Source: Gymnopus androsaceus JB14 | Taxonomy: Eukaryota; Basidiomycota; Agaricomycetes; Agaricales; Omphalotaceae | Assembly (NCBI GenBank): GCA_009733575.1 | Contig: ML769436.1 | Span: 1-64,000, forward strand | Direction of reading: 5' to 3' | Length of the DNA: 64,000 bases | Shown here: positions 14,732-55,000 of the stretch, in pieces | How the letters are laid out: the number at the start of each line of letters is the position of its first letter | Position numbering within the stretch: position 1 is the stretch's first letter | Notes under the pieces: model-generated | The model's input: only the letters and a program-made list of their open reading frames with translations | Databases searched by the model: none | Told to the model about the DNA's origin: nothing | Made by a program: the position numbers and the translations under genes

Positions 14732-16882
14732 TTACCGTACCTTAAACATATGCACCACTATGTCAGGATTGATGTTCTTGCCCTCGGCGTCTTGGACAGT
14801 ATAATGTATCTCGACATCGAGTTCCCGGGAGTTAGAGTCACTCTTACGACAATGAAAGTGCCCTTGTACAACAGAACCTGAAAAAACGGGTTAACGCAAT
14901 GATGGAAAATAAATATAGACTGATAGATAACATACCTTCATCGACGATAAAGGGCTCTTTCAATAAGAATAGTGCCTGCTTCCAATGCGTAGCCATGCTT
15001 TTCGGCCCAGTACTGAAGCTAGTTACTACGTCTACGTCTGCTTTGGTAGAGTCGTCCTCTACAAGCTTCTCCTTTTTACTGTGTTGGTGACTCGCCCGTC
15101 TTTGTGGTGCGGGTCGTCCGCCCAGAGGCCATACTTCCGCGACTACTGGTTCGTTTTCGCGTACCACTTCCACCTCCGTGTCCTCGGAGATAGGAGTACC
15201 GGAAGCAGTGAAAAACGTGTCGAAATATAGAACGAAAGAGGTAACTTTTGTACGTCGATCAACGGAGGAGGTCAGTTTGAATGCAGAGGTAAAGTCGAGT
15301 TGGCGAGAGGTTATCGAGGAGAGATGTAGGTCCTATGAGTGCGATGCGAGTCGCACATGATGAGCAATAGACAATAAAGGATACTTGAAAGCGAAGATAC
15401 CTTTACCACACACGGTGCACTCAGCATTGTGTGAGGTCCAACCACATCAATTATAGCTTCGTCGTACGAGTCTTCGGCCATAACAGACATTTCAAAACCT
15501 GCGCCGGCGTGAGTTCAATATTGAATGTGCTAAACTTATCTACCCACCGTAAATGTCATTCCAGAAGGTTACGCGGTCCTTGATTATCTCGGTGGCGTCG
15601 CACAAGCCAAGCATCATTTTAGACTGGCTAGGAGCCATAACACCTCCGGGTTTCAGGAACCGGTCCCGAGCGTGTAGGACCGAGTCGAGCATGCTTTCAT
15701 ACAGGAGAGCATATCCCATCCATTCGGAGATGATCACATCAACTTTGATTCCTTCAGGCAGCTGTATGTCTTCAATCTTCCCTCGGATAACCGTAATAAC
15801 GTTATCCAAGTTGTTGGCTTTGACAATCTTTTCGGCCCTTGACTGCGATATCCGAAGCATCGACAGCAAAAACCCTTTTGGCACCCGCGCGCGCAGCAAG
15901 AAGAGACAGAATACCGGTACCACATCCCACGTCGAGGACGGTCGCATCTTCAAAGACGGAAGGTGTGCTAAGAATGTATCGTGCATATGTGGATGTCCGG
16001 ACTTTGTCCTGAATCATGATTGCGTGAATTTCGTTGGCGCCATAGGATTCAAAATAATGAGAATCATCGTCGCGTTTCGGTTCCGACGTCTTGGATGATT
16101 CTCCCGATGATGACTCTGCAATGTCAACGAGGCTGAAGCGTTGAGTTACGATCTTTCGATATTCCTCAAATTCGCGTTTAGCTTGAGCTAGCTTTTTTTC
16201 TAGGAGCTGGATGCGGCGCTCAGCGGGGATAGATTGTTCATCGTCTTCAGAATCGGTCCAGTCATCGGGCTGGTATTCTAAAACGCGTTAAATGATGATA
16301 AGGCTGAAAATAAAAATTCACTCACGAAGCATAGGATCATCCTCCAATGCCGGATGAAGGAAATCATCAGAAGTGAAGAATGATTCATTACCCGTGAGCA
16401 TCGCGATATTGGCTGGAGAGGCTCTCTAATGGAGAAATCATCAGCTCGGGTTTGTTTCAATTCATTTAAATTGACGCACCGTTTGTCGAATAAAATTTAT
16501 CAATCGAATACGACCGTGAACGTCCAAGGCTGCAAACAATCCTTTTGAGTGGCTGGTTTTGCTTGAATCATAATTTTTTTGCACAAACATAGTCTAGCGC
16601 AAGCTTCTCCCAGGTCGAAATTATCTGGGAAAACTGTCAAACATAGGTTCGACCAAAAGATTTGCACTAAAACTTACGCGCTGCCTTGTCATAAGCAAGG
16701 ATGCCCTCTACGCTGGGCAAAGTTTTGTCGTCGAAAAGAGAACGGCAATATTTGGTGACCGAATCAGAGACCCAATCGTCCCAGGTCTCTTCATCGTCTT
16801 CCCCGCTTGAGCTGGAAATTCCATCTTCTCCGTCGTGATCTTCCTCGATGCTATTTGGAGTTGGATGAATGTGGATACTCAT
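14732..16882 (-). CDS. PRMT3: Protein arginine N-methyltransferase, PRMT3 type (frame broken at one G run)
   Basis: The enzyme transfers methyl groups from S-adenosylmethionine to arginines; PRMT3 acts on ribosomal protein uS5 in the cytosol. The start at 16882 gives MSIHIHPTPN. Marks in order: acidic N terminus; CRSLFDDKTLPSVEGILAYD and LDVHGRIRLINFIRQT; acidic coiled region; then the catalytic core with YFESYGANEIH, MIQDKVRTSTY, the SAM-binding VLDVGCGTGILSL, the double-E loop EWMGYALLYESML, and the C-terminal beta barrel ending VVHMFKVR. Just after FAVDASDIAVK the frame changes. Dropping one base from the three-C run at 15836-15838 (plus strand) restores AEKIVKANNLDNV. A canonical N-terminal zinc finger is not clear. 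The gene is expected to be essential-like, so the break is probably a sequence error. Confidence 0.88.
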
Positions 16883-17027
16883 CAGACAGAAGAAAAGAAA
16901 AGGCTCAGTTTCGGCGTCTAATTTGCCTGCCTGTACAGGGTCGCTTATGGGCGTTAAATCATTATCGACGACCACCATCGATAAACTTGGTGCCCGAACT
17001 TCAGCACTTGAGCTGGGACCTATTCTA
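16883..17027. promoter_or_regulatory. Bidirectional promoter region of PRMT3 and GSH2
   Basis: About 145 bp separates the inferred start codons of two divergent housekeeping genes, so both promoters must overlap here or in the first codons. No TATA box is evident. Confidence 0.6.
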
Positions 17028-18751
17028 ATGCCACCCTTTGACTTTTCCCAATGGCCTCCTCGTATATCTGAAAAGGATCGCGAAACTTTGCAGTTCCGAG
17101 CTGCAAGTTATGCCCTAGCTCACGGATTGCTCTATCTTCCTGTAGGAGTCCAGCCTTCAGTCCCGACTTCCGCAATACATGCTCCGATTTCCTTGTTTCC
17201 TTCGCCCTTTCCAAGAGAACGATTCGAGCAGGCTCAAAAGTTGCAATCAATCTACAATGTCCTCTATTCTCGTATCGCGATGGACACCGAGTTTCTGGAT
17301 CAAGTAATGGGCACTGAACAAGGAGTAGGGCAGGTAGATGAATTCACGGGTCAGCTTTGGTCAGGCTGGCGGGACTTGCGAGACAAGAGCCTTGCTCAAG
17401 TATATATTCAGCTGTCTATCTTCTCCAAACACACGAGCTGATTTGCATCGCAAGCCATTGCATCTAGGTCTGTTCAGATCTGACTACTTGCTGCATCAAC
17501 AGGGCTCCGAATTGTCCTTGAAGCAGGTAGAGTTCAACACTATATCTTCGTCTTTTGGTACGCTGTCCCAGAAAACTGCCGAGATGCATCGGTACGCGCA
17601 TTGCTGCTCTACTTGATCAGAACCGCGTCTTACTGTTCATTGTTGCATGCAAAGGAGCTTAGAGTCCTCGACGCAATACTTTAATGTTTCACCTCATCTA
17701 ACAGCCAGCAATTTTCCTCCAAACCGCAGTACCGCTGGCTTGGTAGAAGGACTAGTTGCGGCACATACTGCGTACAATGTTGAAGGGTAACCACTTACAT
17801 TTTATCGTCATGAGCTCCGTCTGAATCATCCGCCCAGATCGAAGATCCTGTTTGTTGTCCAGGCCGGTGAGAGGAACGTATTCGATCAGCTCTGGCTAGA
17901 GTATGAACTGTTAGAGAGGTAAGGCGCCTCCTGGGATAAAATATCTCCCTAACTTCTCCAACAGGCACTCAATTCGCGTCGTCCGAAAAACATTCGACGA
18001 ACTCGCACAGCAAGCCAAGATCTCAGAGAGCAATTCTGCGCTTACTGTTGAGTCGCCTAACGAGTCCGCAGTGGAAATCTCCACGGTATACTACCGATCC
18101 GGCTATACCCCCGACGATTATCCTACAAGCGAACAGTATCAGACACGGTTCACTCTCGAACGCTCCAGAGCAATCAAATGTCCTACGATTCCGCTCCAAC
18201 TCGCAGGAGGCAAGAAAGTACAGCAAGTGCTCACCGAACCCGGAGTACTCGAACGCTTCCTTTGTGATGAATCAAAGTATGGCGCTCACGGCGTGTTTCC
18301 CGCTCATAAGCTGGCTGAGCTTCGAGAAAGTTGGATGGGCATGTGGGCATTGGATATGAATGGCGATGCTGGTGTCAAGCAGGCGAGAGAAAGGGCCTTG
18401 GGACTGGTGCTCAAGCCGCAACGCGAAGGAGGAGGAAATAATGTTTATAAAGAAGCAATCCCAGAGTTTCTTGATTCATTATCTCCGAGAGAGCGCTCTG
18501 CGTGGATTGCGATGGAGCTGATTTCCCCGCCAGTAGGTCTAAAGAACTACCTCGTGCGTGCGGGATCAGGAGCGAGTGTTGAAACAGAGGTGGTGAGCGA
18601 GCTTGGTATCTTTGGTTGGTCTTTGTTTGGACAAGGGAAAGTGATAGAGGAAAAGGAGGTTGGATGGTTGGTGCGGACGAAGGGTAAAGAAAGTAATGAA
18701 GGTGGCGTTGCAACTGGGTTTTCAGTCTTGGATTCTCTGCTTTTAATCTAG
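17028..18751 (+). CDS. GSH2: Glutathione synthetase
   Basis: The enzyme joins gamma-glutamylcysteine and glycine using ATP, the last step of glutathione synthesis in the cytosol. Five exons keep one frame: 17028-17399, 17455-17591, 17655-17786, 17838-17918, 17965-18751. The Met at 17028 (MPPFDFSQWP) was chosen because fungal homologues start there; an upstream Met at 16947 is in frame. Family marks are LFRSDYLLH, LKQVEFNTISSSFGTLS, the ATP-grasp LKPQREGGGNNVY, MELISPP, SELGIFGWSLFG, and the C-terminal NEGGVATGFSVLDS substrate loop. Length is normal for eukaryotic glutathione synthetases. It is one of the few genes here with no frame break. Confidence 0.95.
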
Positions 18752-19193
18752 CTGAGGTGATTGTATTGTGTACAGGTGCAAGATTTTTGATAAATCGTTC
18801 CACCGGCGTTAATCCGGTTCGCGCTGTCGGTCTCTTCTTCTTCCTCACCCTCATCGTCTTTTTTCTGTTATTCTTTGTGTCCGCTTCTCTTCTTTGTGGG
18901 ATAATGTTGAAGAAGCTGTAAAAAACCTTGCATTGCATACAAATCTGCGTCAGATCTGGATTCATCCAGTGACCCAGGCATGCAGTGATGCAAAGCAAGT
19001 CGGCCTTTCTTCCTCGGGGTTTTATCTGTTTACAGGCATAACAACAACGTCAAAAAACTGTATACGATCGTCCTACATATTTGGCTCAACTGCTGATTCT
19101 TAAACTTCCGATGTGTTCAAGTTGTGATGACCTTTTTCCGCAGATGATCCAGATGCCATATAAGTAAGAGCTGGCTCGTTGCTAGTATGGCTA
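18752..19193. other. Intergenic, no gene seen
   Basis: This region spans from the GSH2 stop to the GH131 start. No recognisable coding or repeat feature. Confidence 0.45.
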
Positions 19194-20367
19194 ATGCTTC
19201 TCTCTATAATCCTTGCTTTCGGACTCATTGTTGTCGCATCCGCGACGACCTCTCGAGACTTGATTTGGGATGGTCGAGTTGGAATGAACGAAACAGAATC
19301 AGATCTTAATTCCTCAATTGGCCCTTACTTAACGTACGTCTCTCCCCGCCCGCCCGCGGTTGCTTTTTGCTCGGCACTAATCGGTGTATGGGTAGAGTTG
19401 TGAAGGGAAGCGAGCCTGCTTCACATGTACGTACCGCTATCTATGATGCATTCGAACGCTGACACTGTTTGCTCACAGTACACGACTCTTCTGGGAACCA
19501 GGTCTTTGCCAACTCCCCTCTGGCGCAAAACCATTTCGGAACAAGTTATATCTGTCACGATAGACAACAGCTCTATTTTCATCCCTGGAGGCGGCACAGC
19601 GCAGAATGGTTTTCGTAGGACCGATCTCATTGCTCAAGTAAACGGTAGCAATTCCGCCCTCGACACCTTGGAAGTTGGCTTGACTCAATATTCACTTTTC
19701 GGTCAAATCCAATGAACGACTTCCTTTGAAACTACTCGCACGAATACCAAATCGTTTTCATTGAACCTGCAGATGGTACACATGTTTTCGAACTCCAGCT
19801 AGGTTTGTGTAGACTTCTCGGAAGTTCAGTATTTTGTATCAATCATCACGCGTAGGGACACCTTTCAGCAATCCGACTGCGTCTTCTCCTGCTGCTGATG
19901 CCACCAATTTGAAGGTGATCTCAGTCTCCTCTTCGAGACCCCATTCTAATAACCACCGGCATAGGTTCGTGATCATGCCCTAAATCTCCTTTTCGAAACA
20001 CCATTCACTGCGAATCACTGGCATAATTTCGCTGTTCAAGTTGATTGGAATAAATTGACTTTAGAAGTCTTCTATTCCACTGATGATGCGCGCCTGGAAG
20101 CAGTAACCTCGGTAGTTTCTAATCCCACCGCTTCAACAGGATCAGCCGGACAAGGCGATTTTCATATTGCCCTCTTGAAGGTACGTTTGACCTTATCTTT
20201 TCTCTCATCTTCCGAACTGATGCACTGATGCTCCGATATACTACATATAGCTACCCTTGGTCGATCCAAGTGATTCACCTGAAGAGCAGGGTAATGTGGT
20301 AGACTTTGGTATTCAAGAGGGGGATACGGAGGGGTTGCTGTTTTCTGGTGTGTTCGTAACGGGCTAG
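19194..20367 (+). pseudogene. GH131 beta-glucanase, frame broken twice
   Basis: GH131 enzymes hydrolyse beta-1,3/1,4/1,6-glucans. The signal peptide is MLLSIILAFGLIVVASA, followed by LIWDGRVGMNETESDLNSS, YTTLLGT...PTPLW, VISVTIDNSSIFIPGGG, GFRRTDLIAQ, then the HFSVKSNERLPL segment, NYSHEYQIVFIEPADGTHVF, NFAVQVDWNKLTLEVFYSTD and FGIQEGDTEGLLFSGVFV. The piece HFSVKSNERLPL is offset by one base from what precedes it (around 19690), and the next piece by one more (in the AAA at 19729-19731). Outside these two insertions every exon and splice site is intact, so this is either a young pseudogene or two sequencing insertions. The last stop is at 20365-20367. Confidence 0.8.
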
Positions 20368-22100: not shown

Positions 22101-22175
22101 CATTTAGCCTCAGCATTATTCATGCTCAGCTTACAGAAGGCTCATCGCTATATATGATTTGCCACAACCACTGAT

Positions 22176-22461: not shown

Positions 22462-24415
22462 TTATACTATGATTCCTGTTCCGTACCTTCCTTCCGTGTC
22501 CGACGGAACAGCTTCTCCTTTCGCTCTTTTGTGCCAGTCGAGAATCGAGCTGTGGCTAGCAGTATACCCCGAAAGCCCCTCATCAATATCCGAATTCGAC
22601 GGAGGAGCTGCCTTGGCATATCTAATCCGTATCTCTAGTCCAGCATCCACCAGTACTTGTATTCGTCGCAAGTCTCCATCAACAGGTTCGGCCGGTGGCT
22701 TTGGAAAGAATACATCACAGGATTGTAATGTCTGGGCACGACTTTCAATAAAGGTGAGAAGAGCACCGTAAGTGAGGCTTGGATTTTCGTCTTTGTAGAT
22801 GAGTCGTATATGTTGGAGAAGCCTCAAGTTGCCCGATAAGAATGTAAAAACAGAGTCTTCCACTGGATGAGAAGATGGAGAATGATTACTTTTGATTTCC
22901 AAGGAGCGGAGGTTCGGAATCAGCGAGAGACATCCGAGTAATGAATCTGGTGTCAATGCAATATTCAGTGAAAGTGTTTCCACTTCCTGCAGTGACACCG
23001 TAAAGGTAGAGAAGGGTACATGGGGGATGCATATCCGTGTCCCGCGCCATGAGACCGATAGCACCTTCAAGGAAGGGCAAAGAATGGAGCGGAAGAAGTT
23101 TCGAAAAAAATGTCTTCACGTCGTCCACTTCTACATTGTCTGGACCCCGATTTACAAATGTGAGCTTCAGCTTACACATTGCTGGAAGATTGACCGCAGT
23201 ATCGTATGTAGGCTCCCAGTTGCAGATATCAACTTGGAGTGTAAGCGATTTTAGGCGCGGCGTACGCCTCAACATGGATAGGATTTCCCCTGAGGAAGTG
23301 AGATCTGAAGCTACGTAGCATGGTAGGTTCCAGTAGGAGCTCGGTTATATTCTCCCAGTTCAACTGCAGTCGATTGTATTGGCTACCAGATTGACTGAAA
23401 CCACGGACACAAAGCTTCTTCAAGGCGGGCATGCATTGAACAACAGAAGCAAAAGGGAGCTCATTCTCCACCCAGTCGAGAAAGGCATTGTGTATTGCAC
23501 TTCGGACGCGGAACATGTTTAGGATAGGGAAGTTGTGAGAGAGTAGAGAGTCGAGATAAGTGGCAATGTGGGAAATTTTGACCCAGTAAAAGTCAGGTCC
23601 CCGACTCTTGTGCTAAACTAGATCAATATCTCCATGAATGCATGTCCGCCTGCCAATGGATCGGCGGGCATACTACGAATGTACATCCGTTCCTTAGTCT
23701 GCCTAGGACTGTGATCGCGAGAAGTGTCCAAATAGAGCGATATGGATATTGGAAGTGAGCCAGAGCGTTCCAACCAAAGAGTGCAGCCTATGACCATACT
23801 CTTGAGTATTCGGGAGCTCAGTCTCGAGGAAACGTATATATGCAGTGATCTCCACAGGGAAGGAGTACCAATAGCAGTTTGTCTCCACTCTCGAGATATA
23901 AAAGTCAAGAGAAGAGGTGCCTGTGATACGTCTCCAACTGGGTAGTGCACCGGAAGACAACGGAGGAAGATTTCCGAGAGCATTTCCGTAGGCAGACGCC
24001 GTATTGGAGACATCAACGCACGATGACTTTCGTTGTACTTTTTCACAATTTCCCTTCTGTGCGAGGAATCGTCCAGTACACTTTGTACACGAGCTACTTC
24101 CGATTCCAACTGGGAAAGTTGCAGCTGGGAATTGGAAAGAAGAACTTTCGAACGTACAAGTTCCTCTGCAGTTGGAGCGTAATTAGTTTGGATGACGGAG
24201 CGCAGGTGACTGGCGACCCAGTTCAAGTCGTCAGTGGAGTGATTCATGAAAGCGTTGTCGTCGTCGTCGTAGTTCTGGAACAAGTTGTTGTCATCAATGC
24301 GATGAATGGCTGTTAATACGTTAATGAGCGGCTGCCATTTACTCCGTGCCAACACTGCATACTGCATGAACAGATTGATATAGGCGAGATACAGCCATTT
24401 TATAACATAATACAA
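22462..24415 (-). pseudogene. F-box protein with LRR-like tail, several frame breaks
   Basis: The N-terminal part has IQTNYAPTAEEL, a coiled-coil linker, and the F-box core LMSPIRRLPTEMLSEIFLRC, then FISREWRQTAIGTPSLWRSL as usual for Agaricomycete F-box proteins. After GGHAFMEILI there is a stop and a frame change (around 23615). The leucine-rich tail then continues in pieces: HNFPILNMFRV...ITELLLE, a change near 23308, ILSMLRRTPRLKSLTLQV, another change near 23058, and LKVLSVSWRG...SLIPNLRSLEIK to the end at 22462. At least three breaks and one stop make it non-functional as written. Some could be sequencing errors, but the stop plus shift at 23615 looks like real decay. Confidence 0.75.
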
Positions 24416-24505
24416 TACGAACGATAATGGTCAATCCACAAGCACACATCAAGATACAACACACACACAATTAGTCGGCGTTCGTTGACATCCAATTCAG
24501 AGAAT

Positions 24506-29334: not shown

Positions 29335-29340
29335 TACTGT

Positions 29341-30722: not shown

Positions 30723-31300
30723 TAGTAAGGTGAATTTAGTTCATGGTAACATCCTCTCGCGCCTCACTAAGGCTTTTTCTACCTACAGGATTCATGGGTC
30801 CGCGCGCCTGGTCTACAAGTGAAAAGGCCGCTTAGCAGTGTATTCGCTAGCCCTCTTTCATTTCTTTTACTGTGGTTTGTTCTTCCCCCGTCGTTGGCAT
30901 GTAAAACGCCGTTTTTTGGTGCATTCTATTATATTACCGATTCACCTTCTTGTCTCTCTCTTTTCTCTCCAGTCTCCTCACTCATTAATGTAGTACTGTA
31001 CATACCTGAAATTAGCCTCCACTAAACTCAACCGCGCTTTGTTGAACAAATCCCAGCTCTATGCATCTCTTTAGTAATGAAATAGTGACTGGAAACATTT
31101 AGATTGCATTGCGACGAAAGCGTTGGACGAAAAAGTAAGTATGTGATATGATAAAGATAATTTCCGAAATAAATGGGCATGAGCAGTAACAATGCATTGA
31201 AGTCGACGAACATGTGTAAAGGAAACGAACGAACGGATGTATATGCAAGAAGACCAAGCAATAATAACCAAAAAAGAAAGGGAAAAGTTTCAAAAAGTTT
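30723..31300. other. Convergent 3' region
   Basis: The sequence is T-rich with no recognisable gene. Confidence 0.4.
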
Positions 31301-34300
31301 TCACCCCTCCCGAGGTAATGAGATCCCCCCATTCGCAACTAATCGCGTGCCCTGACCTTGAGCCTGCTTCTTGACTTGCTTCTCCATCTTTACCCTTTGC
31401 TTCCTTACATCGTCGTCCTTGACTTTGAATGAAAACGCAAGCGTAATAAAGGCATCAGGCGTCGGAGGTAGCCATGTCGGGGAAGGACGTTTCAGATAAT
31501 ACAAGACAGCGTCTTCAGATGTGGCATCCAAGATGGCGCGACGACAGCAGTAGAGAATAGCGAGGCCTACACGAATTAGGATAGGTACCCCTACGCACAA
31601 AATATGTTCAATGAATAAAGAAACACAGCAATAAGGAGCACGTACCCTCATATAGAAACAGATCCCAAACTCTGTTCACATAATCCCCGGGCAAGCTATC
31701 AACATATAGCGTCGTGAACCTGGAATTTTCGGAAATCAGCACCGGCATGAAAGCAATGTGTATCGACTAACCAAGGAAAACAGATATGCGCAGGGTTGAT
31801 GACCCATATCGACTAGCACCTTCTTGGACACCTGTACGTCGTTCGCCTCGAGTGCACGACTAAATAACGCAGCATCAACCTCCATCTGCGTTGAATTCAG
31901 TGAGAAATAGGGTCGAGAGCAGAATCCATCATGGAGACAAAAATCCAGAATCCGTCTTCCTCTGGAGCAAGAAGAAGCGTGTGTCCAGCAATCAAAGTAA
32001 GCCCTAATAAACAAACCCATGAATAAACGTCAAAAACAAGAAGGAAACCCACGCACCAGCGGAATACTGCACATCCGGCACCATCGTTAGATATGCCTGC
32101 AACAGACTCAATAATGGGCCTTGTGTAGACTGAAGATGCGGGTGCTCCCCAAAACACTTCTTCACATCTCTCTCCATATCCGCAAAAGCCGCCACTCGCA
32201 CACGTTTACTCAACTGCGAATAGACACCTGCTACACCCTTTCGACTTGGCATTCGTGAGATGCGCCCAGACAAGGTATCTAACAGACGAAGGCACGCCCT
32301 CTCCCAGCAACTTCCGCACTTTCTTGTTCTTCTGCGCTTGCGCAGCTGGAATAGTAGATATGATCGTCATCCACTTTTGCTCTCGCTGACGGTGCGCATC
32401 CATCGAAGCTTCAGAATTACTCGACGCCTTCGAGCGGAATGCACTCGAGTCGGATGAGATCCCTGTAGTAGTAAGGCGGGACGTCCCAGAAATACCTGAA
32501 GAGACTGATATCGCGGGACTCTCTGACCTGAGATGGATCGGTCCCCCATCTGCAGCTCTGGATTCCGATCTCCTACCAGGCAAAGGAGAACTCGAATCCT
32601 CACTGGAGGTCCTACTCGCAATAGGGAAATTCGGTCTCACAAGCTCAAAGTCCATGTCCTGCACCTGCATAGTCTCGTTCTCGTTGATACCGATTGGTGA
32701 GCTGATACTTTCTCTGGGGGTGCCTCTGCGCAAGTTGGGCATTGAGAGTTTCATCTGCAGTGAGGATTGACGACCAACGGGGGGTGGTGATATTGCTTGA
32801 GACCTGGAGCTCGAGATAGACACGGTATCCGAGTCCTTGGCTGCTTGCTCGTTGGATCGAGGAGGTGATCGTGGTACCGTAGGAGACGCCGGATTCTCAT
32901 CCAATCCCATTTTCAACAGTCTTCGAGAGTGATGGCCTTCGCGGAGACGCTCCAGGGAGTGCAGCCATCGATGTTACTTTCCGTAACTGACTTGGACGCC
33001 CGTTTGTGCCAAAACCAGATGCAAGAGGACTCGTAGGAGCTTTGGCTGGAGACCGCGAGGAATCGTTAAAAGGCATAGACAGAGGAGACGGAGAATGCAC
33101 ATTGCGCAGCTTGGAACTTGATGCCGGTCTACGCAACGGCGACGAAGTCGGTGGGCCTTTCGTTGGTGATGGTGCCGTTGCCAACGGCGAAGATGTGAGA
33201 GAGGCTGATGATCCCCGAGCACGCAGTGTTGGAGGCTTGTTGGCATTTGGGATACTAAATAATTATGGATAAGCCGAAACACATCGATTTACAAAAAGAA
33301 ACCACACTCACGGTGATGAACTATCCTTGGCAGCGAGAGGAGAAGAAAAACCTGTAGAAAAACTTTTTGATCTCGGACGAGGTTTAGGTACCTGTGGCGT
33401 GTAACTGTCTCTAGGATTGACAGCACCAGATCCAGGCGGGGGAGGAGGGCTGGGAGACGCTACAGGCGGAGTAGAGACGGTAGGTATGGAAGCAGACGCT
33501 GTCGCACTCCGTTTGATACTATTCATCTGCGGAGGCTGCTGCTGATAAGGTTGGGGTGATTGAGAAACGATAGCACCATTTCCAGGTGGAGGAGTTGAAT
33601 TAGCCATACGAGAGGTGGTAGGTAAGGAAGCAGAGGCTGTCACACTCCGTTTCATGCTGTTTGGCTGCTGAGGCTGCATCGACGGATATTGTTGATCTAG
33701 GAACTGACGACGGGGAGAAGGAGGTGGTTGCATAGCAGAAGACTGTCTAAAGCTCACGGGATCATGAGCAGGAAGTGGTGGCGGACCCATAGGCTCTACA
33801 CTGAAGGTGATAGGTACAGGCCCATTTGAAGTAGACAAGTCTACATCGACTCGAGCATAGATGGTGGGACCACGGGGAAGGGGCGGAGGAGGAGCAGGAG
33901 GAGGAGCACCACGCGCACCACGGATAGGCATGGATGAAGGAGGGGGAAGCATGACTGGCGGTAAGGGTGGAGGCGGAGTATTCAGAACCATGCGTAGAAC
34001 ATGTGAGGCAAGCTTCTTGGGATCAGGTCCCTCTCGAGTTTGATTTGCGGTGGTCCTCGAGAGTTGTCGACGTTGCTGATCATCGGACCCGGACTCTGGA
34101 CTGGAGCTTTCGGTGCATTTGGATGAGGAAGGAAAAGAGATTGACGTTGTCCCTCACCCTCAACAGCAGAGTCCGGATAGCCTCGAAGCTCCGCAAGAGA
34201 AGGACGGGGAATCGGCTTGCTTGGTGAGAGAAATGGGGGAAACTGGGATGAGTTTGCAGGAGGCATCAGGTCCATTGGAAGATCTCCAGGAGAATACGGA

Positions 34301-37300
34301 GATCGCTGCGGAGATGGGAGAGGGGGAGCTTCCTGACACACCAGAACGTGGGGAACCAGGCGATGTGAGTTGGAAGCCTGGAACAGGGGGATTAGATGTG
34401 ATCACTAGATGCGGTACTCCCATCGTCTCGTTCTTGTTCTTTGGAGAGGAAGGCATAGAATAGACAGAAGGACTAGTTTCATTCGTGTATCGCGAGTCCG
34501 CACTGTCGAGAGTGGAATTCCCATATCGGAAATCCGCACTCTCCATGGTAGTCAAACTCATGTCCATCTCTCCCTTCTTGAGGATCCATCGCGTGCGAAG
34601 GTAGCTCCTCGTCATCCTCGATGACCAAGGGTCTACTACTACAGTCCAAATGTCAGACACCCATACTACGGTGAAAAAAAAAAAATTACTCACCTAGGTA
34701 TTGAGGAAAGGGATGAGTCGGGTCCTTCCATTGTTCTACTATCTTGCGTCTCAGCCCTCTGAGGTTGTGGATGCTCTTTCAACTGACCCCGTTCTTGTTC
34801 CTCATCCGATCCATGCGTGTCCATGAATGGAGGAGTAGGGTATCCCGCACTGCTTCTATCATCATACATGCTTCCTGCACTCTGCGTTGAGCTCTCCTGG
34901 ACTTCCCCAACGAGTATGTAATAATGGAGAAGGCCCCACGTCCCCATTCGTACCAGAACTAGCACGAGCCTGGTCTTTGGTGAGATCCAACGGAGACGGT
35001 CGCCGGCTGAGATGTTTACCGCCATTGGAAAGCTTCTCAGCGAATGAAGTGACACTCGGGGAGGGACTGTTCTTCACTACATTCAAAGCTGGCGTCGTGT
35101 TCACTTTTTCAGGTGTAAGTAATGATGCAGCGTGAGCCTCAAGGAGGGATAATGAAGGTTTCGACGACAGGCGAGAGTAGATGGATTCATCATCCGAATC
35201 ATCTGAATGGGGAGATGATCCAGAGTGGTGACTGGAAGTAGTGGAATGACGCGAGCCCGAACGAGATCCAACGACACTCGTGGGTCTTTGCATAGTGAGG
35301 GAATCATACCGCGGTGGGATCCGGGAAGGCGTTATGGTGGTATTAGTATCCGTTGAATCCGCCGAAAGGGAGCTATCTAGAGAATTCTCTAAATCTTCTG
35401 ACTCTGCAGGTGCAGGTGCAGGCTCAGCAGGAGGTAGCTCTGTGTCATCGGCATTGGTTTGAACGCTGAGGGGATGGAAATTCGGTAGAGAACCTGCAGC
35501 AGGCATGGTAGATCTTGAGGGGATACTGAAACCCGACTTTGCGCTCATCTGAGAGTGCCTTGAGTTTTTCGACGCCATCGAGTAACGATATAGATAATTG
35601 TCGTATATATCAGAAGCACCCTCCCAATCACTTGCGGAAGTACCTGATTTATGAGAGAAAGTGGGCGAATGAGGAGGGGGTGGCGGAAGGATATCATCAA
35701 CAACATTTTCATCCGGCCGTTGAGGTGGGAATTTAAAGTTTGGCGGAGGGAAAACAGGCGACCGATTCGGTGAAGCGGGTTGTATGGAGGGTGGCCGTTC
35801 ACCAGAAGAATAGACAGATTCTGAACGAGCAGAAACTGGCGGCGATTGCGATTCCTCTGGCTGCTCTGCCGGGTGACCGAGAGCAGTAGCCTCGCCGCTC
35901 TCTGAAGAGTCCGTTTCTTTAGATTCAACCGTCCCAAGCGATTCTGAACTTGTTATCGAGGGATGAGACTCGTGTGTAACTCTTCCCAGATTCTCAAATA
36001 TACCGCCCAATCCTCTACGCAAAGCAGGGTTCATTGTGCTTTGACCGAACGTTCCAAAAGGGTTAACTGGATCAGACGACGTGACAACTGCAATCTGAGT
36101 GGATGGAGGTCGAGGGAAAGCTGCGACAGCTTCTTTTGAGATACTAGGCGACTCGACGCTGAAACTGCTAGGTGAGGAACCAGAATCGTCGTCCACGGAT
36201 CTGGAACTCGCTCCCGAAGCATCCTGATGCGGTCTGCTCCCGTGTGCCTCTTCCTCATATTCGTCGTCGCTATCTCCTTCGCCTAGACTCGCTAGCAACG
36301 ATAACCCAATGCCTATTTCTCCGTCTGAACCCGTTGAAGTCATGGAAATGCGAGGATCACTCGTCTCTTCATCTGACATATTGCCGAGATAATTTGACGA
36401 GGCAACAGACACGACTGATTTCCGTTTGCCAGAAGGTTTTAATATGGATGAAGGAGATTTTGAGCGCATTGTAGAAGCGAAGGATCTAATAGAATCGGAT
36501 CTTTTGGGTAGTAAAACTTGGTCCGCATCCGACTCTGATAGAATGCTTGTCATGCTAGGTTGTCGAGCATGTTCCGCAAACATGGACGGCGGAGACATTA
36601 CCCGAGGTAAACCAAAATCAACGGAAGCCGACGCGTCCGACTGCGTAACAGAAGGATTATGGGCATGTGAAGCGGACGAAGATCTGGAGACGGGCTTTGC
36701 CTCGAACGTAGAACTCCGTTTTGGACTGCTAGCAAAAGCTGGAGTCTGCGGAGTAGGCGGATTGGAGGATGCCGGTGTAGAAGAAGGAGAATTCCTAAAC
36801 GTTGAAGTTGGAGATATTCCTGTCGGAGATTTGACTCTGGAGGACATGGCTGTAGAATTTCGCTTGGTCATAACTGGTCGTTTCAGTTTGGAATGGAAAT
36901 GAACAGTCTGCGCATGAAATTTCCCGACGACCCCTTCGCAATAACCCTGCATAAATCTATTAGATTTAAACATTAATTGGGAATTAATGACTTTTACCAG
37001 ATAGACACCATCGCCTTCAGGAATTTGCATCAACACTGTAATTTCATCGTCCTATACAGCTATTGACCACATAATTCAAAAAAGCTATTAAATCAAGAAA
37101 TACCTTTAAAAACATTAAATCTTCACTACTTTCCGCAACGCAATCCTCAGTCGCTGTACATTTCCCAATTCCCCCTTTGGCAGCAAATCGCGTCCACCGA
37201 GAAAGTTCTGCAGCATCCATGAAGGTTGAAGATGGAATTGCCGCAAAGCTGGTTCTGGGTCCTCGTATCACTGTGATGCCAACAGTTCTCCGTATTAGGC

Positions 37301-45848: not shown

Positions 45849-46868
45849 TCAGTACTTGGTGTACTTGCCCTCTGCCTCCTTCAGAGCTTGTACACGACGC
45901 GGAAGCGAGTCGTACAGGTTGTCAATGTATGACATGTCCAAATTGGCCCACTCCTCCTGAAGTGCTGTCCACAACTGGTCACAGTTTGTCGGGAGAGGTT
46001 TGCGAGCACGTATTTTATCATCAAGTTGGTCCCAGGCATTCTCTATGATGTTCATATCCAGCGAAAACGGCGCCCAGCGCAAGGTTTTGACCTTGAAACG
46101 GTCAAGCCATTTTCGGACAAACTTGGATTTGTGCTTTGGGTCACTGTCCTGCTGCAAAACAATGCTTTCGACATCGATATTTTTGTCCTGCAGGGTCCCA
46201 AGAAGGTCTTCTTCCAATATCTGAGCATAAACAGGTCCGGTCATAATCCCTTCAATGCGATGAAGGTGACCTGGGCCAAACTCGGTAATGCAACCCCAGA
46301 CCATGACACTTCCACCACCATGCTTCACTGTCTTCTTGATATTCCTCTCTTCCAACTCTTCCCCAGGACGACGACGGCAGTACTGCTTCCCATCCGACCC
46401 AAACAAGTTAAATTTGCTTTCATCTGAGAACACTACACCCCTCCAATCATCAGCCGTCATATCACTCATGTCCTCTGCCCACTCTTTTCGCTTCTCTATG
46501 TGTTCTGTCTTCAGCAATGGCTTTGGTCTTCGCACCCGACCATTCAGTCCCTCCTGCGCCAGCATTTCGCGAACTCTCCGGGGAGAAATTTCAGGAAAAA
46601 GTTTCTTCTGGACATCAGAACCATCGCGACACTTTCCCGTGTCAATCGCCTGTACTGCTTTGCGTCGATCTCGTTTAGAAAAAAGAGGTTTTCGATTATG
46701 ATTGGTGGATTTCTGATAAGGGTTGGGGTTACGCTTCATTTTGGTATAGTTTCGGTGGGCTGTACTGGTAGAAAATCCGAGTTCTAGGCCAATATCGCGG
46801 AAATCCATCTTCTCAATGTCATGCATGCGTACCACACGAGATTTCTTTGTTGGACTGCATTTGACCAT
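45849..46868 (-). CDS. Tc1-like transposase (DD34E)
   Basis: The transposase cuts and rejoins the element ends. The Met at 46868 (MVKCSPTKKS) is the likely start. The frame is open further upstream into the inverted repeat (to 47042), but that part is repeat sequence. An N-terminal helix-turn-helix region (MDFRDIGLELGFSTSTAHRN) precedes the catalytic domain: first Asp in VVFSDESKFNLFG, GGGSVMVWGCI, second Asp in VLQQDSDPKHKSKF, and Glu in NIIENAW. Exactly 34 residues separate the second Asp from the Glu. The usual SPDLNPIEN is SLDMNIIEN here. At about 340 residues the length is typical, and no stop or frameshift interrupts it. Confidence 0.92.
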   Translation of the reverse strand: MVKCSPTKKSRVVRMHDIEKMDFRDIGLELGFSTSTAHRNYTKMKRNPNPYQKSTNHNRKPLFSKRDRRKAVQAIDTGKCRDGSDVQKKLFPEISPRRVREMLAQEGLNGRVRRPKPLLKTEHIEKRKEWAEDMSDMTADDWRGVVFSDESKFNLFGSDGKQYCRRRPGEELEERNIKKTVKHGGGSVMVWGCITEFGPGHLHRIEGIMTGPVYAQILEEDLLGTLQDKNIDVESIVLQQDSDPKHKSKFVRKWLDRFKVKTLRWAPFSLDMNIIENAWDQLDDKIRARKPLPTNCDQLWTALQEEWANLDMSYIDNLYDSLPRRVQALKEAEGKYTKY

Positions 46869-46971
46869 TGTATATGTGAAGGATAGAGTTGGTAAAGGAA
46901 TTATGACTGTTTTCTGCTGTTTTGGCCTGGTTTTGGCTGATGAGTGCGCTGTCGAAGTGGGAGCGCGTTTC

Positions 46972-47191
46972 AAATTTCGCACAGTAATCACTTCTGTCAT
47001 CTCGTTTGACCAGTACTGTACCCGTTCCATTGTATTTTTCAAAATCCTTCAGTACACTACAAGAACATGTATATAGCTTCATTTTTGCCACTAAATGTTA
47101 GTCCATAAAGTACGTATGTTTTGACACAATCGAGGTGCATCGAAGAAATTGGTCTCACAGACCGTTGTTCCGTTCCGAAGCGCCGCCACTG
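46972..47191 (-). repeat. Right terminal inverted repeat of the Tc1-like element
   Basis: See 45564-45783. It ends ...GCGCCGCCACTG before the TA duplication. Confidence 0.9.
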
Positions 47192-48375: not shown

Positions 48376-50657
48376 CTAATAGCAACATTCATTGTAATGG
48401 ATCCCTCTTGATAATGCATTATATTGTATGGCAATAAAATAAAATAAATATCTCGCGTGCCATACGTCGGGCAATACTTTCCACGATTTACTGATGCATA
48501 AGTAGATTGCCATAAATCGTGCGCACATATCACTTTTAATTCCAGTTAAGCACTTGCTAACGCAGACTTGACTTGGGTGAGCTGAACAACTGGACACATC
48601 AAATGAGTCAGTAAGAAACAACAAGGAAGAAAGTATCCAAACCACGCAACTCATCAAAGGGAATGGATGTGACTCCATAGCACCTATCACGCGCTTGGAA
48701 AACCCAACAATCTGAGGCAATGTAAATGGAAGATTTGCAGGATTGCCTGGTCCTTTCAAGCGCAGAATTTCGTCGATAAAAACTTTACAGGCTATTGTCC
48801 AGATAATCTGCGAATAAACAAGATCGTCAGTCACTTGTACACATTTATAACAGCCATTGATCCTTACAGCCAGCATGGGATCAATAAATTCCAACTCCGG
48901 GACATGGGCCCATGTGTCAATGAGGTCTAGGATCGATTTCGCCGCATTGAGGATCCTTATACGAGAAGAAACACTTTCTGGTGCGAAAGGAAGGTGCAGC
49001 TGAATGTCAGCAGCGTTTGCAAGTGAATTAATGCACAGCTGGTAGTTTAGTGGAGGCAGATTAGCTCGATCCACAGGCAATAAAGTGCTAATGAATCTGG
49101 GTATGAGACTGTCCAAAATGTCGAAATTAGTTTGAGAAGTTGGATCTAATGTGTACGCAACTGAGCAGTCTAAACGGCTCCAGAAATATCCTGAAGCAAA
49201 CTTACCGTTCTTGAATTGAAGTCCAGTGAATGTGGCACGCTCAAACAAAATCGCTGCTTTGCACTGTGTCGCTCTTGGAGAATTGGCATCATCAGGCAGA
49301 CCCCTGAGGAAGTTTTCGATAGTGTGGCTGCTTCGAAAGTTGGGATCGAGTGGTTTCTGGACAATGCGCGTTAATAATTAATAATGAAGGAAAAAATATC
49401 AAGTTACAAACCTCGGCATATTCTTCCATGATAAGAGGCCACGGCGTATCGATCCTTACTGTAGATGAAGTATATGGGATGCTAGAGGGCGTGCCATGTA
49501 CACTGTTCCAGAAGCTATCCAAAGTCAGAACCGTCCAAAACGCGTTGATCAATTCCCCTTCTTCCACTGAATCCTTGGGCAGTGCTAGCGTACCCAAAGC
49601 CTCTGCAAGATACCCAGATTTTTCGGTGTCAGAGCTACGAATCTTGTGCAGTCCGCCACCCAAGACAAGAGATGCAGCGGCGGTTACATGGTATTTTCCT
49701 TCTACAGTTTTACCCGCGAGGTAAAAGTAGTTTCCGAGTAGGATTTCTGCCTGGATGAATTGAGTGATTTTTTGAGGATGGTTTTCGGATAGAGCATGAG
49801 CGGAACTTTGAAGTGCACGAGAAACAAGTGTGGCTTCTTGCTCCAAAGAGTTCTGCGAAGATGAGAGATGATTCCCCCATACGTAGGTGGTATTTAAAAG
49901 GGCGAAAGTTGGAGCCTCTCCCTCAGATTGTAGTACTGTCTTAATGAAGCGGCCTCTGTGCAAAAAGAAGCCCACCCAGCAGCAGTTCATAATAAAATTG
50001 TGCACCCTATTATGAAGTAAGTAGGTTATTGTCGACTTAGTTGGAAAGTTGCCGACTCACAAAAGACGGCGAAGAATCGGAGGTAAGTCCTGCCAAGGAT
50101 GCCAAGGATACATAGTCAGCTAAGGTAAATAACAGACAAGAATAGCTTTCTATTACCTCAAATCCTGATGCAGGCAATGGGCCTAGTATTCGGTTTGAAT
50201 GAGCGAACAGACCACTGATAACTAGTTTTACGCACCGAATGACGTCTCTGCCGAGGTCGAAAGTGGCCTTGTCTCAAGTCTCTGCAAATCTTCGGATGCT
50301 CCTCTGCTTTCAAGCTCATGCAATCGGGCTTCAAGCACGGATATTTGATCTTCAAGCATTTTGGCTTGTGAGATAGCGTTGTACCCAACATACTCACAGT
50401 CGCTGAAAGCTTCTGAGGAGGTTGTTTGACAAGGTGTGCATTTGGGTTTCCGGCCGTCGCATTTCTGCATAAAAAAATGTCGCCTAAGTGATACTGAACA
50501 ACAAGAAGTCTACGAGATATACACACGATCTTCCGTAGTCTGCGAGAACGTTCAGTGTACTAGGTAATATATTACGACAGAGATGCTCTAACCTGCAATT
50601 TGTGCAAGCCGTTCCTTTTTGCAATGGGACGCCGCTAGCGCTATAGTTTTTGGGCAT
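48376..50657 (-). CDS. Zn2Cys6 fungal transcription factor, possibly with altered 3' end
   Basis: The start at 50657 reads MPKNYSASGVPLQKGTACTN. The zinc cluster is split by introns: CTNCR, KCDGRKPKCTPC, then DCEYV, followed by a coiled coil (MLEDQISVLEARLHELES). The regulatory domain continues as GRFIKTVLQSEGEAPTFALL, ALGTLALPKDSVEEGELINA, FWTVLTLDSFWNSVHGTPS and RIDTPWPLIMEEYAE. Later exons include LPPLNYQLCINSLANAADIQ and LNAAKSILDLIDTWAHV. At the 3' end the frame runs from GAMESHPFP directly into the dispersed repeat copy 2 (48484-48650) and ends at 48376. The natural C terminus may therefore have been replaced by repeat sequence, or an exon boundary was missed. Targets unknown. Confidence 0.72.
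48484..48650 (+). repeat. Dispersed repeat, copy 2
   Basis: Direct match to 42712-42880. One end falls where the regulator's coding frame stops resembling its family. Confidence 0.65.
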
Positions 50658-51112
50658 ATTTTTGATCTTTAATGACGCGATGGTGAGTGATAAGAGAAGA
50701 AGACGCGCGTGCACAAATCAGTCCTACACGGGACTGTCGTCCTTTGGAACGATTTTTTGTGCTGGTACTAGTATTTGATGCGGACGCTTTTATATCTGTC
50801 TCGCCTCCCGCAGGATCACTCAGCAATCTTGTCCGATGCACAAAATTCTTCACATCCTTACACAGAGCTTTAATCAGCAGCGGCCGTAGACAGCGGATGG
50901 GTAATACTAATATGGAACTGCAATTTGCGATATCCGCTCTGTAAGCCACAGTGAGCTGACTCGAATGGAATTCTGCAATAAGAATATTGAAGTGGTATTC
51001 AAGGAGCTTCATCTGCGTGCTTGAGGGTCTTGGTTCGGTACCGACCGTGAAAGTCTGTGGGCTGGATACACTACCGTTCTACGTATGGCCGCTGGATGGC
51101 CGAAATCTTCCT
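50658..51112. other. Upstream region of the second regulator
   Basis: No gene is recognised; open frames here are short and lack motifs. Confidence 0.4.
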
Positions 51113-51745
51113 TCAACGGCTGTAAATGCGTTCATTGGCTGAGGAGGGATCCGGATCAACAGAGCGGAAAAGTACGACCAAAAACCACATACGGACGGAA
51201 ATCCTCGCATTCTCAGCCAGAACCTTCTCTGTCACCTTCCAAAACTCCACCGCCAACTTGGCATCTTCCGTAGCCCCAGAATCATCCTCAAGAGAAGGAT
51301 AACCAGACGGCATAACATAAGCTTCTGCTCATTTTAGATCTGAGTGTAAGTGCGCCTTGTAGAGTAAAAGCTACATCGAGTCTAGCCAAGTTGTCGGGGC
51401 CTACGAACTTGATGGCGCCATCTATCTATGATCGATTTTTTGGGCCTGGGAAGAGAGCACTACCCGGATTCGCCGCTAGAGAAATCGCCTGAACACCTTC
51501 AGCATTAAACTTCCTCTGCAGTTCCCTCACGAAGAGGATGTTAGCCAGAGAGCAGAGATTGAAGGAGACATCCCACGGAGTGCAGAAATCCCTGCTTGAG
51601 CTTTCTCAAGAGTGCGAGCTTGGAGATAGACTTGCGCCTTTGAGCGCAAGTTGGTGGGCTATTCCAGTCGATGCTGATCGGAGAGCTGTCGCGTCAGAAC
51701 AAAGTCCTATCGGATTGGTGCCCACTTTGAACCAGTAACTAGAGC
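51113..51745 (-). pseudogene. Short-chain dehydrogenase/reductase relic
   Basis: Pieces of an SDR protein are visible on the minus strand in several frames: an N-terminal GTxxG-like glycine region near 51720 with YLQARTLEKAQAGI-like sequence, then directly LANILFVRELQRKFNAEGV and LAANPGS, which normally lie after the catalytic Tyr-Lys. Near the end, YPSLEDDSGATEDAKLAVEF and WKVTEKVLAEN match an SDR C terminus. The middle third with the YxxxK motif is deleted, and the pieces are in different frames. It is clearly non-functional. Confidence 0.65.
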
Positions 51746-53137
51746 GTCTTTTCCTGTCAGATCAGGCAGCATGCTGAGATCGTATTGCTGAGAAGGAAGC
51801 AGGATGGAGACACATCATAGTCATAGACTCACTTCGCATGCTACCTAAGACTTTTCTGTGAGACGCGGTAGAGGGCCACTGAGAGATAAACGAGGCAGAC
51901 CTTTCGTATTCTGGCATTGGTCCTTCCTAATTCAACATACCAATAGGCAAACGAAGTCATTAGTCAAGGCAAGGTGGAAGTAAGACAAGCGCTGATCCAT
52001 GTCGGGCGCTTAGCCAACTTGCTTTTCCTTCAAAAACGTCGATGCAGCCATGGCGAAAGCCAAAGCAAGGTAGCTTCACCATTAATCCAGGAAACTAATG
52101 TCTCAACGCTTTGGACTAGAACCATCATCATCCGTCTAATTTCCACCGCTCAAACTGGCTTTTTCTACACCACGCAACGAGTGAGGCAGGGTTTAACATT
52201 GTCTGCTGTGAAATATGATCCTATAGGTGCGTAAAGGGTATCTGAAGTATTCAACTAGCAGCCAACTCCGTTCTTCTATAGTGAAGCGCCGTGTTTTATT
52301 CGTCGAGAGTAAAAAGTTGAAGAAAGGGCAGTAATAGGAAGACGTCTCGCGGTGGTGATACGAAGGTGTGTAAAACTCAAATTATCTATCTTTTGCTTTT
52401 GCTAAACCGATTCTCAATTTTACCAGTCGCTCTGCAACTTGCTAAACTCATTCGATACGCTTTGGACCGGCCGCCTCTGCGGATGACTAGATTTTTACCA
52501 TGTATTTTGCTCTTACTCATAACACGGTAATGCGATACGTTCTAGTGTTCATCTATGCGAGCAATAGCCTTTGCCCATTCCTGTCAACCTGGCGGTAGCA
52601 CTCATTAGAGAGACCGTGTATTCTACTAAACCCGCCCAAGCCTTCTATGACCTCGTTTCCACCAGTCTCCTTCTTTCCCAACTGACTCTGCAGTCCTGCT
52701 GGATAGTGACACATCACTTGAAACAGAGAATGCTTGGAGAGCTGTTTCTGTCAGAAGTTAAGCGGGACGAAATCTCACTGTTAACAATCTCTATTCAAAC
52801 TTGATCTAGGACCAGGACGCTCAATACGCTGTGTGGTACGGCTATGTAGTATAGGGCTTAGGGGAACGGCGTTGCGAGAGCTCCATATGCAATTTCACTG
52901 CGATTATCGCTAGTTTTGCCGGGTTGTTATAGGGTGGTATTGTATATACTTACCGTCAGTCCCATGCCAATCCTACGCCGAGAAACACGAAGATCCCTAG
53001 ACCCAGATATTCGATTTCGGTACCGTCGCTCATCCTTCCTAATGACTGTAACCCAGGTAGTTCATAAACAGCAAAGTTTGAAACGACCTCAAGATTTTAT
53101 TTGGGCTGTATCGAACCTCCCAAATCCAGTCCCGAGA
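51746..53137. other. Intergenic, no gene seen
   Basis: Several 60-90 codon open frames occur on the plus strand without motif, splice continuity or signal peptide. Nothing else is seen. Confidence 0.4.
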
Positions 53138-53565
53138 ATGACAACGAACATCCCCACCAACAATTCTGCCGCTTCTCTTGTATCCAATGCTAACACCGTC
53201 TCTTCTACGGTGCCATTGAACCCACGTCAGGTCCCACAAAAAGACTACGCGGCTGCTTTTGTAAATCTTCAGTCTCGGTACGGCGCCGTCCCTGCACATC
53301 TCCCCACTCCTACCCCGGCCGTTAGGCAGAAGAAGGCAAAGGACTCACCACAAGCCTCTGCAGGCCAGAGTACATCATCGGGCATCTCAGATGCAACCGA
53401 GGAGGCCTCAGGTAGTAAGGCGGACGCGCTACAACACCTTCTGGGACCCCTTCACCTGCCACAGAAGAATCCAAGAAGAAAGCAGAGGGAGCCAAGAAAA
53501 AACGCTTCTTGCTTCCATGGAAAGGTTCGTCCATCTTTTTTGAAACAGATACATCGCACTTATGA
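53138..53565 (+). CDS. Small conserved basidiomycete protein (KDYAAAF type), frame broken once
   Basis: The Met at 53138 opens MTTNIPTNNSAAS. The core VPQKDYAAAFVNLQSRYGAV resembles a short protein common in mushrooms, with Ser/Pro-rich flanks. The expected C terminus, a lysine-rich tail (EESKKKAEGAKKKRFLLPWK), is present but in another frame, which ends in a TGA at 53563. The change lies around 53421-53430. The role of this family is unknown; the basic end suggests nucleic-acid or membrane contact, which is inference only. Confidence 0.55.
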
Positions 53566-54346
53566 AAATTCCAAGCAAATAAATAATTTGGAAGGTATAT
53601 CAGTCTTCATACATGATGCGTGCTTTCTTTTGACGCTTCCGGTCTCATTAGGTTCAATGCCAACCTCCCTCGTTGTATTCTTCATCATATGTTATCTATG
53701 TCCGTTTAGTATATATGAATCTCCCAGTAAATGAGACCACCTGGATCACTAGCAGCATAATAAATCTACAACACTATTCGGACACAATTACTATATGTGT
53801 CTGCTTCGATTTTCCAGGGAAAGTCTTTGCGAAAACTTTTTATACATCAGGTACAGTGAGAATAAGTATTGCCCGTGAAGGTGGAAATGAGGGAATATAT
53901 AACCTGGAGATCAAAGTGACTCTACCATTAAAGTAGTAGATTTGTCTTGGGATCCGTCAATCGTATTTTCATCATTGATCACGAAGGATATGTCGTTTGT
54001 CTCCTCATACTTCATCTCGTGCCCTACACTTATGAGCATGATCACCGCTCTAACGGAACAAGATCAACATTCACGTTTGTGAATAAGGACAGAAGAACTC
54101 ACGATGCTATCGTAAAGAGACAGCTAACCCAGAGAAGGGACACGTATGCAATGTTTATTGCCCAGTCCTTATATTCTGAACAAGAGGAAAGTCAATTCAA
54201 AGCTCGATGGATTGCGGAAGGTTACGAACTGAGAGGCGGGCTAGAGAAGAAATCAGTGTATTGCTCTTGCATTGCTACAGGCGCGCCAGTGATGAACGCC
54301 GAGTGGGTGGTTACTACGACCTATTGATACCCGTCAAAAACTAATT
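53566..54346. other. Intergenic; one unassigned frame
   Basis: A 126-codon plus-strand frame (53947-54327) has no recognisable family and no clear splice context. It is not called as a gene. Confidence 0.4.
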
Positions 54347-55000
54347 CTATAAGGAACCAAGGATACGCACAGTGCTCAAGATAGCCGCAGCGAGGAGCCC
54401 AGCAGTAAAGACTATAGCCAAAGCCATCCGTGTGTAGTTATACCACCTGGGATAGATATGACGAGGCCATTGAACGACGAGGAGCAAATCTATATTGAAA
54501 AGGACGGACGCCAGTGCACCGAAAGTGAGGGTGAGGATCTCCGCAGCGATAATGTCGTCGTTGTGAAGCCCTACCACAAATGCAGGTGTGAGAGTGAGGG
54601 CGTATTGTTGTATATGGGTTTGCAGGCTATTGTATCTGTGCATGGAGAAGGTCGCTAGGCCCTGCGCAACGGCACCGATGTTCGTAGCGATCTGATAAGC
54701 AACTGCCAGTGGGTGACATGAGATGAATTCTCGGATTAAAGGAACGAAACATACTGAGGCGTTCACGACGCAGATGATGCGCACGCGAGTACATATTCTT
54801 GCCTTTGAAAGCATCCCACCTCATTTCATTGAGGTCAAGACCCCATAGCTTTGCTTGGAACGGCCATGCTTTGGAGATCGTGTGAGAGTGGAAGAACAAA
54901 GAGGAAAGGAAATGAAAAGCGATGGAAACTGAACTCACCACCGTTATAATTGGGTTCAGAGCCTGAAGTCTCACCCGTGAGAGGACTCGATGAGGTTCAG
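54347..55000 (-). CDS. Multi-pass membrane protein (frame broken at one A run)
   Basis: Exons read SPLTGETSGSEPNYNG, then AWPFQAKLWGLDLNEMRWDA, a stretch RICTRVRIICVVNAS, an intron (gtatgt...atcag), and IATNIGAVAQGLATFSMHRY. Hydrophobic helices follow (IIAAEILTLTFGALASVLFN and MALAIVFTAGLLAAAILSTV), ending at 54347. Between WDAFK and ARICTR the frame shifts; removing one base from the AAA at 54804-54806 restores it. No start codon is seen in frame upstream, so the 5' end is incomplete or also damaged. Function unknown. The pattern resembles small mushroom integral membrane proteins with four or five helices. Confidence 0.55.

What the first reader, a model, noticed from the sequence alone, without database searches (positions are those of the whole stretch)
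14732..54998. One-base frame breaks at homopolymers in otherwise intact genes
PRMT3 (CCC at 15836), the SH3-TBC gene (34905, 34322, 34088, 32906), the membrane protein (TTT at 54804, plus strand) and GH131 (AAA at 19729) each regain continuous protein when a single base is removed from, or in one case (34088) added to, a short homopolymer. Most are extra bases. PRMT3 is not expected to be dispensable. The simplest reading is homopolymer error in the assembly, so several pseudogene calls may be false. Breaks with deletions or stops (S10, SDR, F-box at 22.4-24.4 kb) do not fit this.
Basis: partly seen in the sequence, partly recalled or inferred. Interest (0 to 1): 0.75.

Follow-up and report, generated by a model that had tools for sequence, protein, structure and literature searches.

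The report
Assembly errors mimic broken mushroom genes
Several genes in this mushroom genome look broken by single surplus bases, but the same flaw turns up in genes the fungus could hardly live without, so the breaks are almost certainly mistakes in the genome assembly that have also distorted at least one published protein.

Summary
The window is the start of a 288,635-base contig of the litter-decay mushroom Gymnopus androsaceus JB14. No in-frame stop was accepted in these three. The membrane-protein break is not supported: three genomic copies share its TTT run and flanks, and the stretch upstream varies like an intron. Similar breaks lie elsewhere in the genome in genes essential in yeast (recalled): CCT5 (8 surplus bases, no stop, 97.2% identical to Lentinula), CCT7 (at least 1) and RPA2 (at least 2). 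CCT5 and PRMT3 show little or no excess amino-acid change. Assembly error is by far the best reading for PRMT3 and GH131 and the likely one for TBC, whose protein drifts slightly faster. The public JB14 PRMT3 protein has SR in place of 12 conserved residues because its gene model contains a 31-base intron just before the break. 'Homopolymer' is only partly right: scored sites are mostly runs of 2 to 4, some single bases. Errors are patchy; the neighbouring glutathione synthetase gene reads intact. A known kind of artefact: low biological interest, practical value for users of this proteome. No reads were available.

The parts
14735..16882 (-). PRMT3 gene (type I protein arginine methyltransferase 3), 8 exons, one one-base frame break
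   Evidence: aligned end to end with 3 of 3 orthologues used (75.7-80.9% identity), 0 in-frame stops, one FS+1; PDB PRMT3 match 2fyt_A
15836..15840 (-). The PRMT3 break: one surplus base at a three-base run
   Evidence: same place with P0002, P0003 and P0004
15843..15873 (-). 31-base stretch spliced out as an intron in the public JB14 PRMT3 model (P0001)
   Evidence: splicing it out gives text found in P0001; the orthologues keep the residues; the seven introns aligned in this gene are 48-68 bases
16589..16624 (-). 36-base exon of PRMT3 missing from P0001
16947..18751 (+). Glutathione synthetase, control gene that reads without a break
   Evidence: five exons with GT..AG introns give an open 529-aa reading (one of several splice choices listed there); Pfam PF03917 and PF03199
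19260..20358 (+). GH131 glucanase gene, two one-base breaks (aligned at 19689-19692 and 19735-19738)
   Evidence: against PDB 9k7o_A: two FS+1, 0 stops, 52.6% identity; Pfam PF18271 pieces
31297..37220 (-). SH3-TBC (Rab-GAP TBC) gene, eight breaks: six surplus and two missing by frame
   Evidence: P0121 and P0122; five of the eight are FS+1 or FS-1 with both
54350..54998 (-). Membrane-protein gene; supposed break at 54804 not supported
   Evidence: three copies share the TTT run and flanks; mostly non-triplet gaps just upstream
22465..24430 (-). F-box-like gene: frame switches that look one-base, one at a seven-base run 23104-23110, plus an in-frame TAG
   Evidence: read by eye; no Pfam match for two of its ORFs

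Best explanation
The breaks in PRMT3 and GH131, and probably those in SH3-TBC, are consensus errors of the JB14 genome assembly, mostly one surplus base, often a copy of a neighbouring base. They occur in patches through the genome. The genes themselves are probably intact in the living fungus. The gene caller dealt with the PRMT3 break by placing a false short intron, so the public protein lacks conserved residues. Shown: the breaks, the absence of other damage, similar breaks in CCT5, CCT7 and RPA2, the 31-base intron. Inferred: that reads would not carry the surplus bases, and that noisy single-molecule reads at low depth are the source.
For: Same assembly: C54 is 288,635 bases, the contig length given for the JB14 protein P0001. 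PRMT3: one break, 0 stops, 3 of 3 orthologues used agree. CCT5 on C29: 8 surplus bases, 0 missing, 0 stops, 97.2% and 95.5% identity to two orthologues; only full copy found. CCT7 on C6: one surplus base inside an otherwise ungapped 235-residue match to yeast CCT7. RPA2 on C31: two breaks. Protein distances: CCT5 is as far from outgroups as the intact Collybiopsis gene (89.8 vs 89.8%; 90.5 vs 90.4%); PRMT3 is 79.2 vs 80.0, 75.0 vs 75.0 and 65.6 vs 67.1%. The 31-base intron reproduces the P0001 text. None of the 65 TBC homologues listed is named G. androsaceus; 3 have no name.
Against: No reads or transcripts could be examined. How JB14 was sequenced was not established: PMC8480192 says its genomes were sequenced with Illumina and PacBio and assembled with Velvet, AllPathsLG or Falcon, and JB14 is not in its accession list. 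Errors are patchy: glutathione synthetase reads clean; in the adjacent-piece test 2 of 51 pairs over four Pfam families were flagged, though that test missed the RPA2 breaks; a likely allele pair has five one-base gaps in 2,885 aligned columns. The second RPA2 break lies where the PDB match has a gap. The N-terminal end of the CCT5 alignment is poorly placed (16-residue insertion). The TBC gene is further from relatives than its orthologue P0121 is: whole length 63.8 vs 71.4% (P0122), 60.6 vs 65.1 (P0123), 44.9 vs 50.5 (P0124), 45.1 vs 51.0 (P0125); TBC part 88.2 vs 89.1, 72.7 vs 75.0, 71.0 vs 73.3 (P0122, P0124, P0125). Real decay of TBC is therefore not excluded.
Confidence: 0.88

Rival explanations
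1. True pseudogenes or recent null alleles: the genes were really broken by one-base mutations in this strain, perhaps in one nucleus of a dikaryon.
For: TBC carries eight breaks and its protein drifts somewhat faster than its orthologue; a second TBC copy on C207 lacks most of the middle, so copies of this gene do decay.
Against: No accepted in-frame stops in PRMT3, GH131, TBC or CCT5; CCT5 carries eight breaks at 97.2% identity and normal evolutionary distance; one full copy each of PRMT3 and CCT5 was found.
Confidence: 0.07
2. Mosaic consensus of two collapsed haplotypes: indels between alleles mixed by the assembler give frames that neither nucleus has.
For: A proteasome subunit appears on C328 and C69 at 92-96% identity, as haplotigs would. 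PMC8445201 reports apparent frameshifts corrected by allele-specific assembly in Trypanosoma brucei (title and abstract start seen).
Against: The C328/C69 pair shows only five one-base gaps in 2,885 aligned columns (not sorted into exons and introns). It would not obviously predict such a surplus of extra bases.
Confidence: 0.1
3. Programmed +1 frameshifting: ribosomes skip a base at these sites.
For: 20 of 22 breaks have the same sign.
Against: By eye the site letters share no motif and no common stop-codon context; the orthologues of PRMT3 and CCT5 are annotated as continuous proteins.
Confidence: 0.005
4. Introns missed by the reader: the frame change is normal splicing.
For: Best reading for the membrane gene at 54804.
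Against: For PRMT3 and CCT7 the flanking residues are contiguous with orthologues; the splice used in the public PRMT3 model loses conserved residues.
Confidence: 0.02

Closest known systems
Residual indel errors in long-read assemblies that fragment predicted genes
   Same: One-base, mostly surplus, frame breaks scattered over conserved genes with little other damage; PMC12007338 (abstract start seen) describes such gene-fragmenting errors.
   Different: Technology and read depth of JB14 were not established here; the density is patchy, up to 8 breaks in one gene of about 1.6 kb of coding text.
Decayed pseudogene
   Same: Frames are broken at several places.
   Different: Little or no decay of the protein text in CCT5 and PRMT3, no accepted in-frame stops, introns kept.
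PRMT3 (type I protein arginine methyltransferase)
   Same: End-to-end alignment to basidiomycete PRMT3-like proteins and a match to PRMT3 2fyt_A.
   Different: One surplus base in the assembly; the public JB14 model lacks two stretches.

Membership tests
Assembly base error | Breaks are one base and nothing else is damaged | tested here: met
   16 of the 19 breaks placed by alignment are FS+1 or FS-1 with every near reference used (PRMT3 1, CCT5 8, GH131 2, TBC 5); three TBC breaks are given as two bases with one or both references, same frame effect; no accepted in-frame stop
Assembly base error | Same breaks in single-copy genes that the organism needs | tested here: met
   CCT5 8, CCT7 at least 1, RPA2 at least 2; essentiality is recalled from yeast
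Assembly base error | Absent from reads and transcripts | not testable with these tools
   No reads held
Assembly base error | Preference for homopolymers | tested here: inconclusive
   Run lengths 1-4, mean 2.35, between the random and neighbour-copy models; 17 of 22 breaks scored, by eye
Pseudogene | In-frame stops or longer disruptive indels | tested here: not met
   PRMT3, CCT5, GH131 and TBC (one apparent TBC stop at an intron edge set aside); the F-box gene does have a stop
Pseudogene | Relaxed constraint on the protein | tested here: inconclusive
   Not met for CCT5, at most 1.5 points for PRMT3; TBC 4.5-7.6 points lower over its length and 0.9-2.3 in the TBC part
Programmed frameshift | Shared slippery motif, conserved in relatives | tested here: not met
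   No shared motif by eye; orthologues are annotated as continuous proteins
PRMT3 | Full-length match to PRMT3 and to its solved methyltransferase core | tested here: met

The most novel reading that the evidence does not exclude
Some breaks, above all the eight in the TBC gene, are real one-base null alleles carried by one nucleus of a dikaryon and sheltered by the other (whether JB14 is a dikaryon was not tested), so that the assembly has caught nucleus-specific gene decay next to ordinary sequencing error.
Probability: 0.05. Interest if true: 0.55.

Novelty: not a real feature. Interest (0 to 1): 0.2.

Why it matters
Gene-loss, pseudogene and intron counts drawn from the JB14 genome, and possibly from others made the same way, may include false entries. 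The PRMT3 case shows how: the break becomes a 31-base intron and the public protein loses conserved residues with no mark in the protein text. Checking CCT5, CCT7 and RPA2 is a quick quality test for this assembly.

Tried and rejected
A home-made coding HMM with frameshift states was dropped: it found the PRMT3 break but bridged others with false introns and gave at most 3 of the 8 CCT5 breaks. The adjacent-piece test on Pfam matches is coarse: 2 of 51 pairs flagged, RPA2 breaks missed. Pfam scans of 30 further window ORFs gave matches for 3 (glutathione synthetase, DDE_3 transposase, fungal transcription factor). The peptidase S10 search found nothing on C54. The TBC alignment to the distant P0124 (51.3% identity) adds frameshifts in disordered parts, some in cancelling pairs, that I take as noise; an extra FS+1 at 31309 against P0122 only, at the C-terminus, was not counted. 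Searches for how JB14 was sequenced showed no statement in the listings and passages seen. Exon anchors went wrong for PRMT3 exon 1 and for glutathione synthetase; one search replaced the latter.

Full report
Identity of the window. The window is C54:1-64000 of an 83.27-Mb, 934-contig genome. The nearest protein to the window's PRMT3 is P0001, Gymnopus androsaceus JB14, with a contig of 288,635 bases. C54 is 288,635 bases long, so this is that assembly. PMC3961408 used isolate JB14 of this species as one of three litter fungi (passages).

PRMT3. The residues on both sides are contiguous with the orthologues. The public JB14 protein has SR where query and orthologues have the 12 residues VFAVDASDIAVK or their like. 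Splicing out a 31-base GT..AG stretch, 15873-15843, gives that text. P0001 also lacks the 36-base exon 16624-16589 and begins with a 32-residue extension that by position runs antisense into the first exon of glutathione synthetase as I model it.

SH3-TBC. Against P0121 and P0122 (Collybiopsis luxurians and C. confluens; 67.8% identity over the aligned codons of each) there are eight breaks. Five are FS+1 or FS-1 with both references; three are given as two bases with one or both, with the same frame effect. P0121 shows no in-frame stop. One apparent stop against P0122 (33310) sits at what I take for a misplaced intron edge, and one extra shift at the C-terminus (31309) appears with P0122 only; neither is counted. 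The four in the disordered middle (34897, 34576, 34304, about 34058) are less exactly placed than the others; the distant P0124 agrees on 34897 and on the four from about 32908 down, and differs in the middle. Distances: in the TBC part the gene is 88.2% to P0122, 72.7% to P0124 and 71.0% to P0125, where P0121 has 89.1, 75.0 and 73.3; over the whole length it is lower than P0121 to all four relatives compared (63.8 vs 71.4, 60.6 vs 65.1, 44.9 vs 50.5, 45.1 vs 51.0). The mapping runs through P0121 and so favours it. A second copy on C207 matches P0121 residues 57-94 and then only 1182-1757. None of the 65 homologues listed is named G. androsaceus, and 3 have no name (candidates are limited to 0.55-1.75 times the query length).

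GH131.

Membrane gene. The genome search found three copies. All share GATGCTTTCAAA at the supposed break, and just upstream they differ by gaps of 2, 12, 19 and 1 bases. Substitutions between 54700 and 54380 fall 24, 18 and 27 on the three phases, without a clear codon bias. The simplest reading is an intron boundary, or a family that is not under strong constraint; it is not a one-copy homopolymer error.

Elsewhere in the genome. CCT5 on C29 aligns over all 542 residues of P0186 and P0195 with eight surplus bases, none missing, no stop, and 97.2% and 95.5% identity; the N-terminal end is poorly placed. The only other close CCT5 text found is a C-terminal fragment on C29 near 23.2 kb. CCT7 on C6 has one surplus base inside an otherwise ungapped 235-residue match to yeast CCT7 (4v81_G; frames); the rest of that gene was not aligned. 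The Pol I subunit RPA2 on C31 has two in the stretch examined; the second lies where the PDB match has a gap. That these genes are essential in yeast is recalled, not tested. Distances: CCT5 vs Armillaria 89.8% (Collybiopsis 89.8%), vs Pleurotus 90.5% (90.4%); PRMT3 79.2 vs 80.0, 75.0 vs 75.0, 65.6 vs 67.1.

Sign and context. By frame, 20 of 22 breaks are surplus: PRMT3 1, GH131 2, TBC 6 of 8, CCT5 8, CCT7 1, RPA2 2. For 17 of the 22 that I could localise by eye (5 TBC breaks left out), best-case run lengths average 2.35; simulated random insertions give 1.73 and neighbour copies 2.62. Surplus bases therefore tend to copy a neighbour, but long homopolymers are not the main sites.

Patchiness. 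Glutathione synthetase (16947-18751), next to PRMT3, is open over 529 residues with one of the splice choices listed. In 51 adjacent pairs of Pfam pieces from four families, 2 lack room for an intron (the test misses some breaks, as RPA2 shows). A likely allele pair (C328 and C69) differs by five one-base gaps in 2,885 aligned columns. Patches of low read depth would explain this, but depth was not available.

Literature. PMC8480192 says its genomes were sequenced with Illumina and PacBio, assembled with Velvet, AllPathsLG or Falcon, and polished with Quiver; JB14 is not in its accession list (passages and data-availability section). PMC10216425 (passages) describes S. pombe with rmt3 deleted, with more free 60S subunits, so PRMT3 alone would not prove the case. 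PMC12007338 and PMC8445201 (titles and abstract starts) show that this kind of artefact is known.

Verdict. Assembly error for PRMT3 and GH131; likely for TBC; not for the membrane gene. The F-box gene has an in-frame stop besides frame switches that look one-base and stays undecided.

Noticed in passing
window 16882-16947: PRMT3 (minus) and glutathione synthetase (plus) start 64 bases apart head to head in my models; the public PRMT3 model has a 32-residue N-terminal extension that runs antisense into the other gene.
   Followed up: partly
C29:23110-23324 (table): A fragment copy of the C-terminal end of CCT5 about 7 kb downstream of the full gene.
   Followed up: no
C207:66510-68460 (table): Second SH3-TBC copy with no match between P0121 residues 94 and 1182, perhaps a real decayed copy.
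   Followed up: no
L034 (C328:10001-18000) and L035 (C69:177001-185000): A proteasome subunit on two contigs at 92-96% identity, perhaps two haplotypes.
   Followed up: partly
window 45852-47048: DDE_3 transposase match in an open frame of 399 aa.
   Followed up: no
window 22465-24430: F-box-like gene in three frames; one switch at a seven-base run, another place has an in-frame TAG (by eye).
   Followed up: partly
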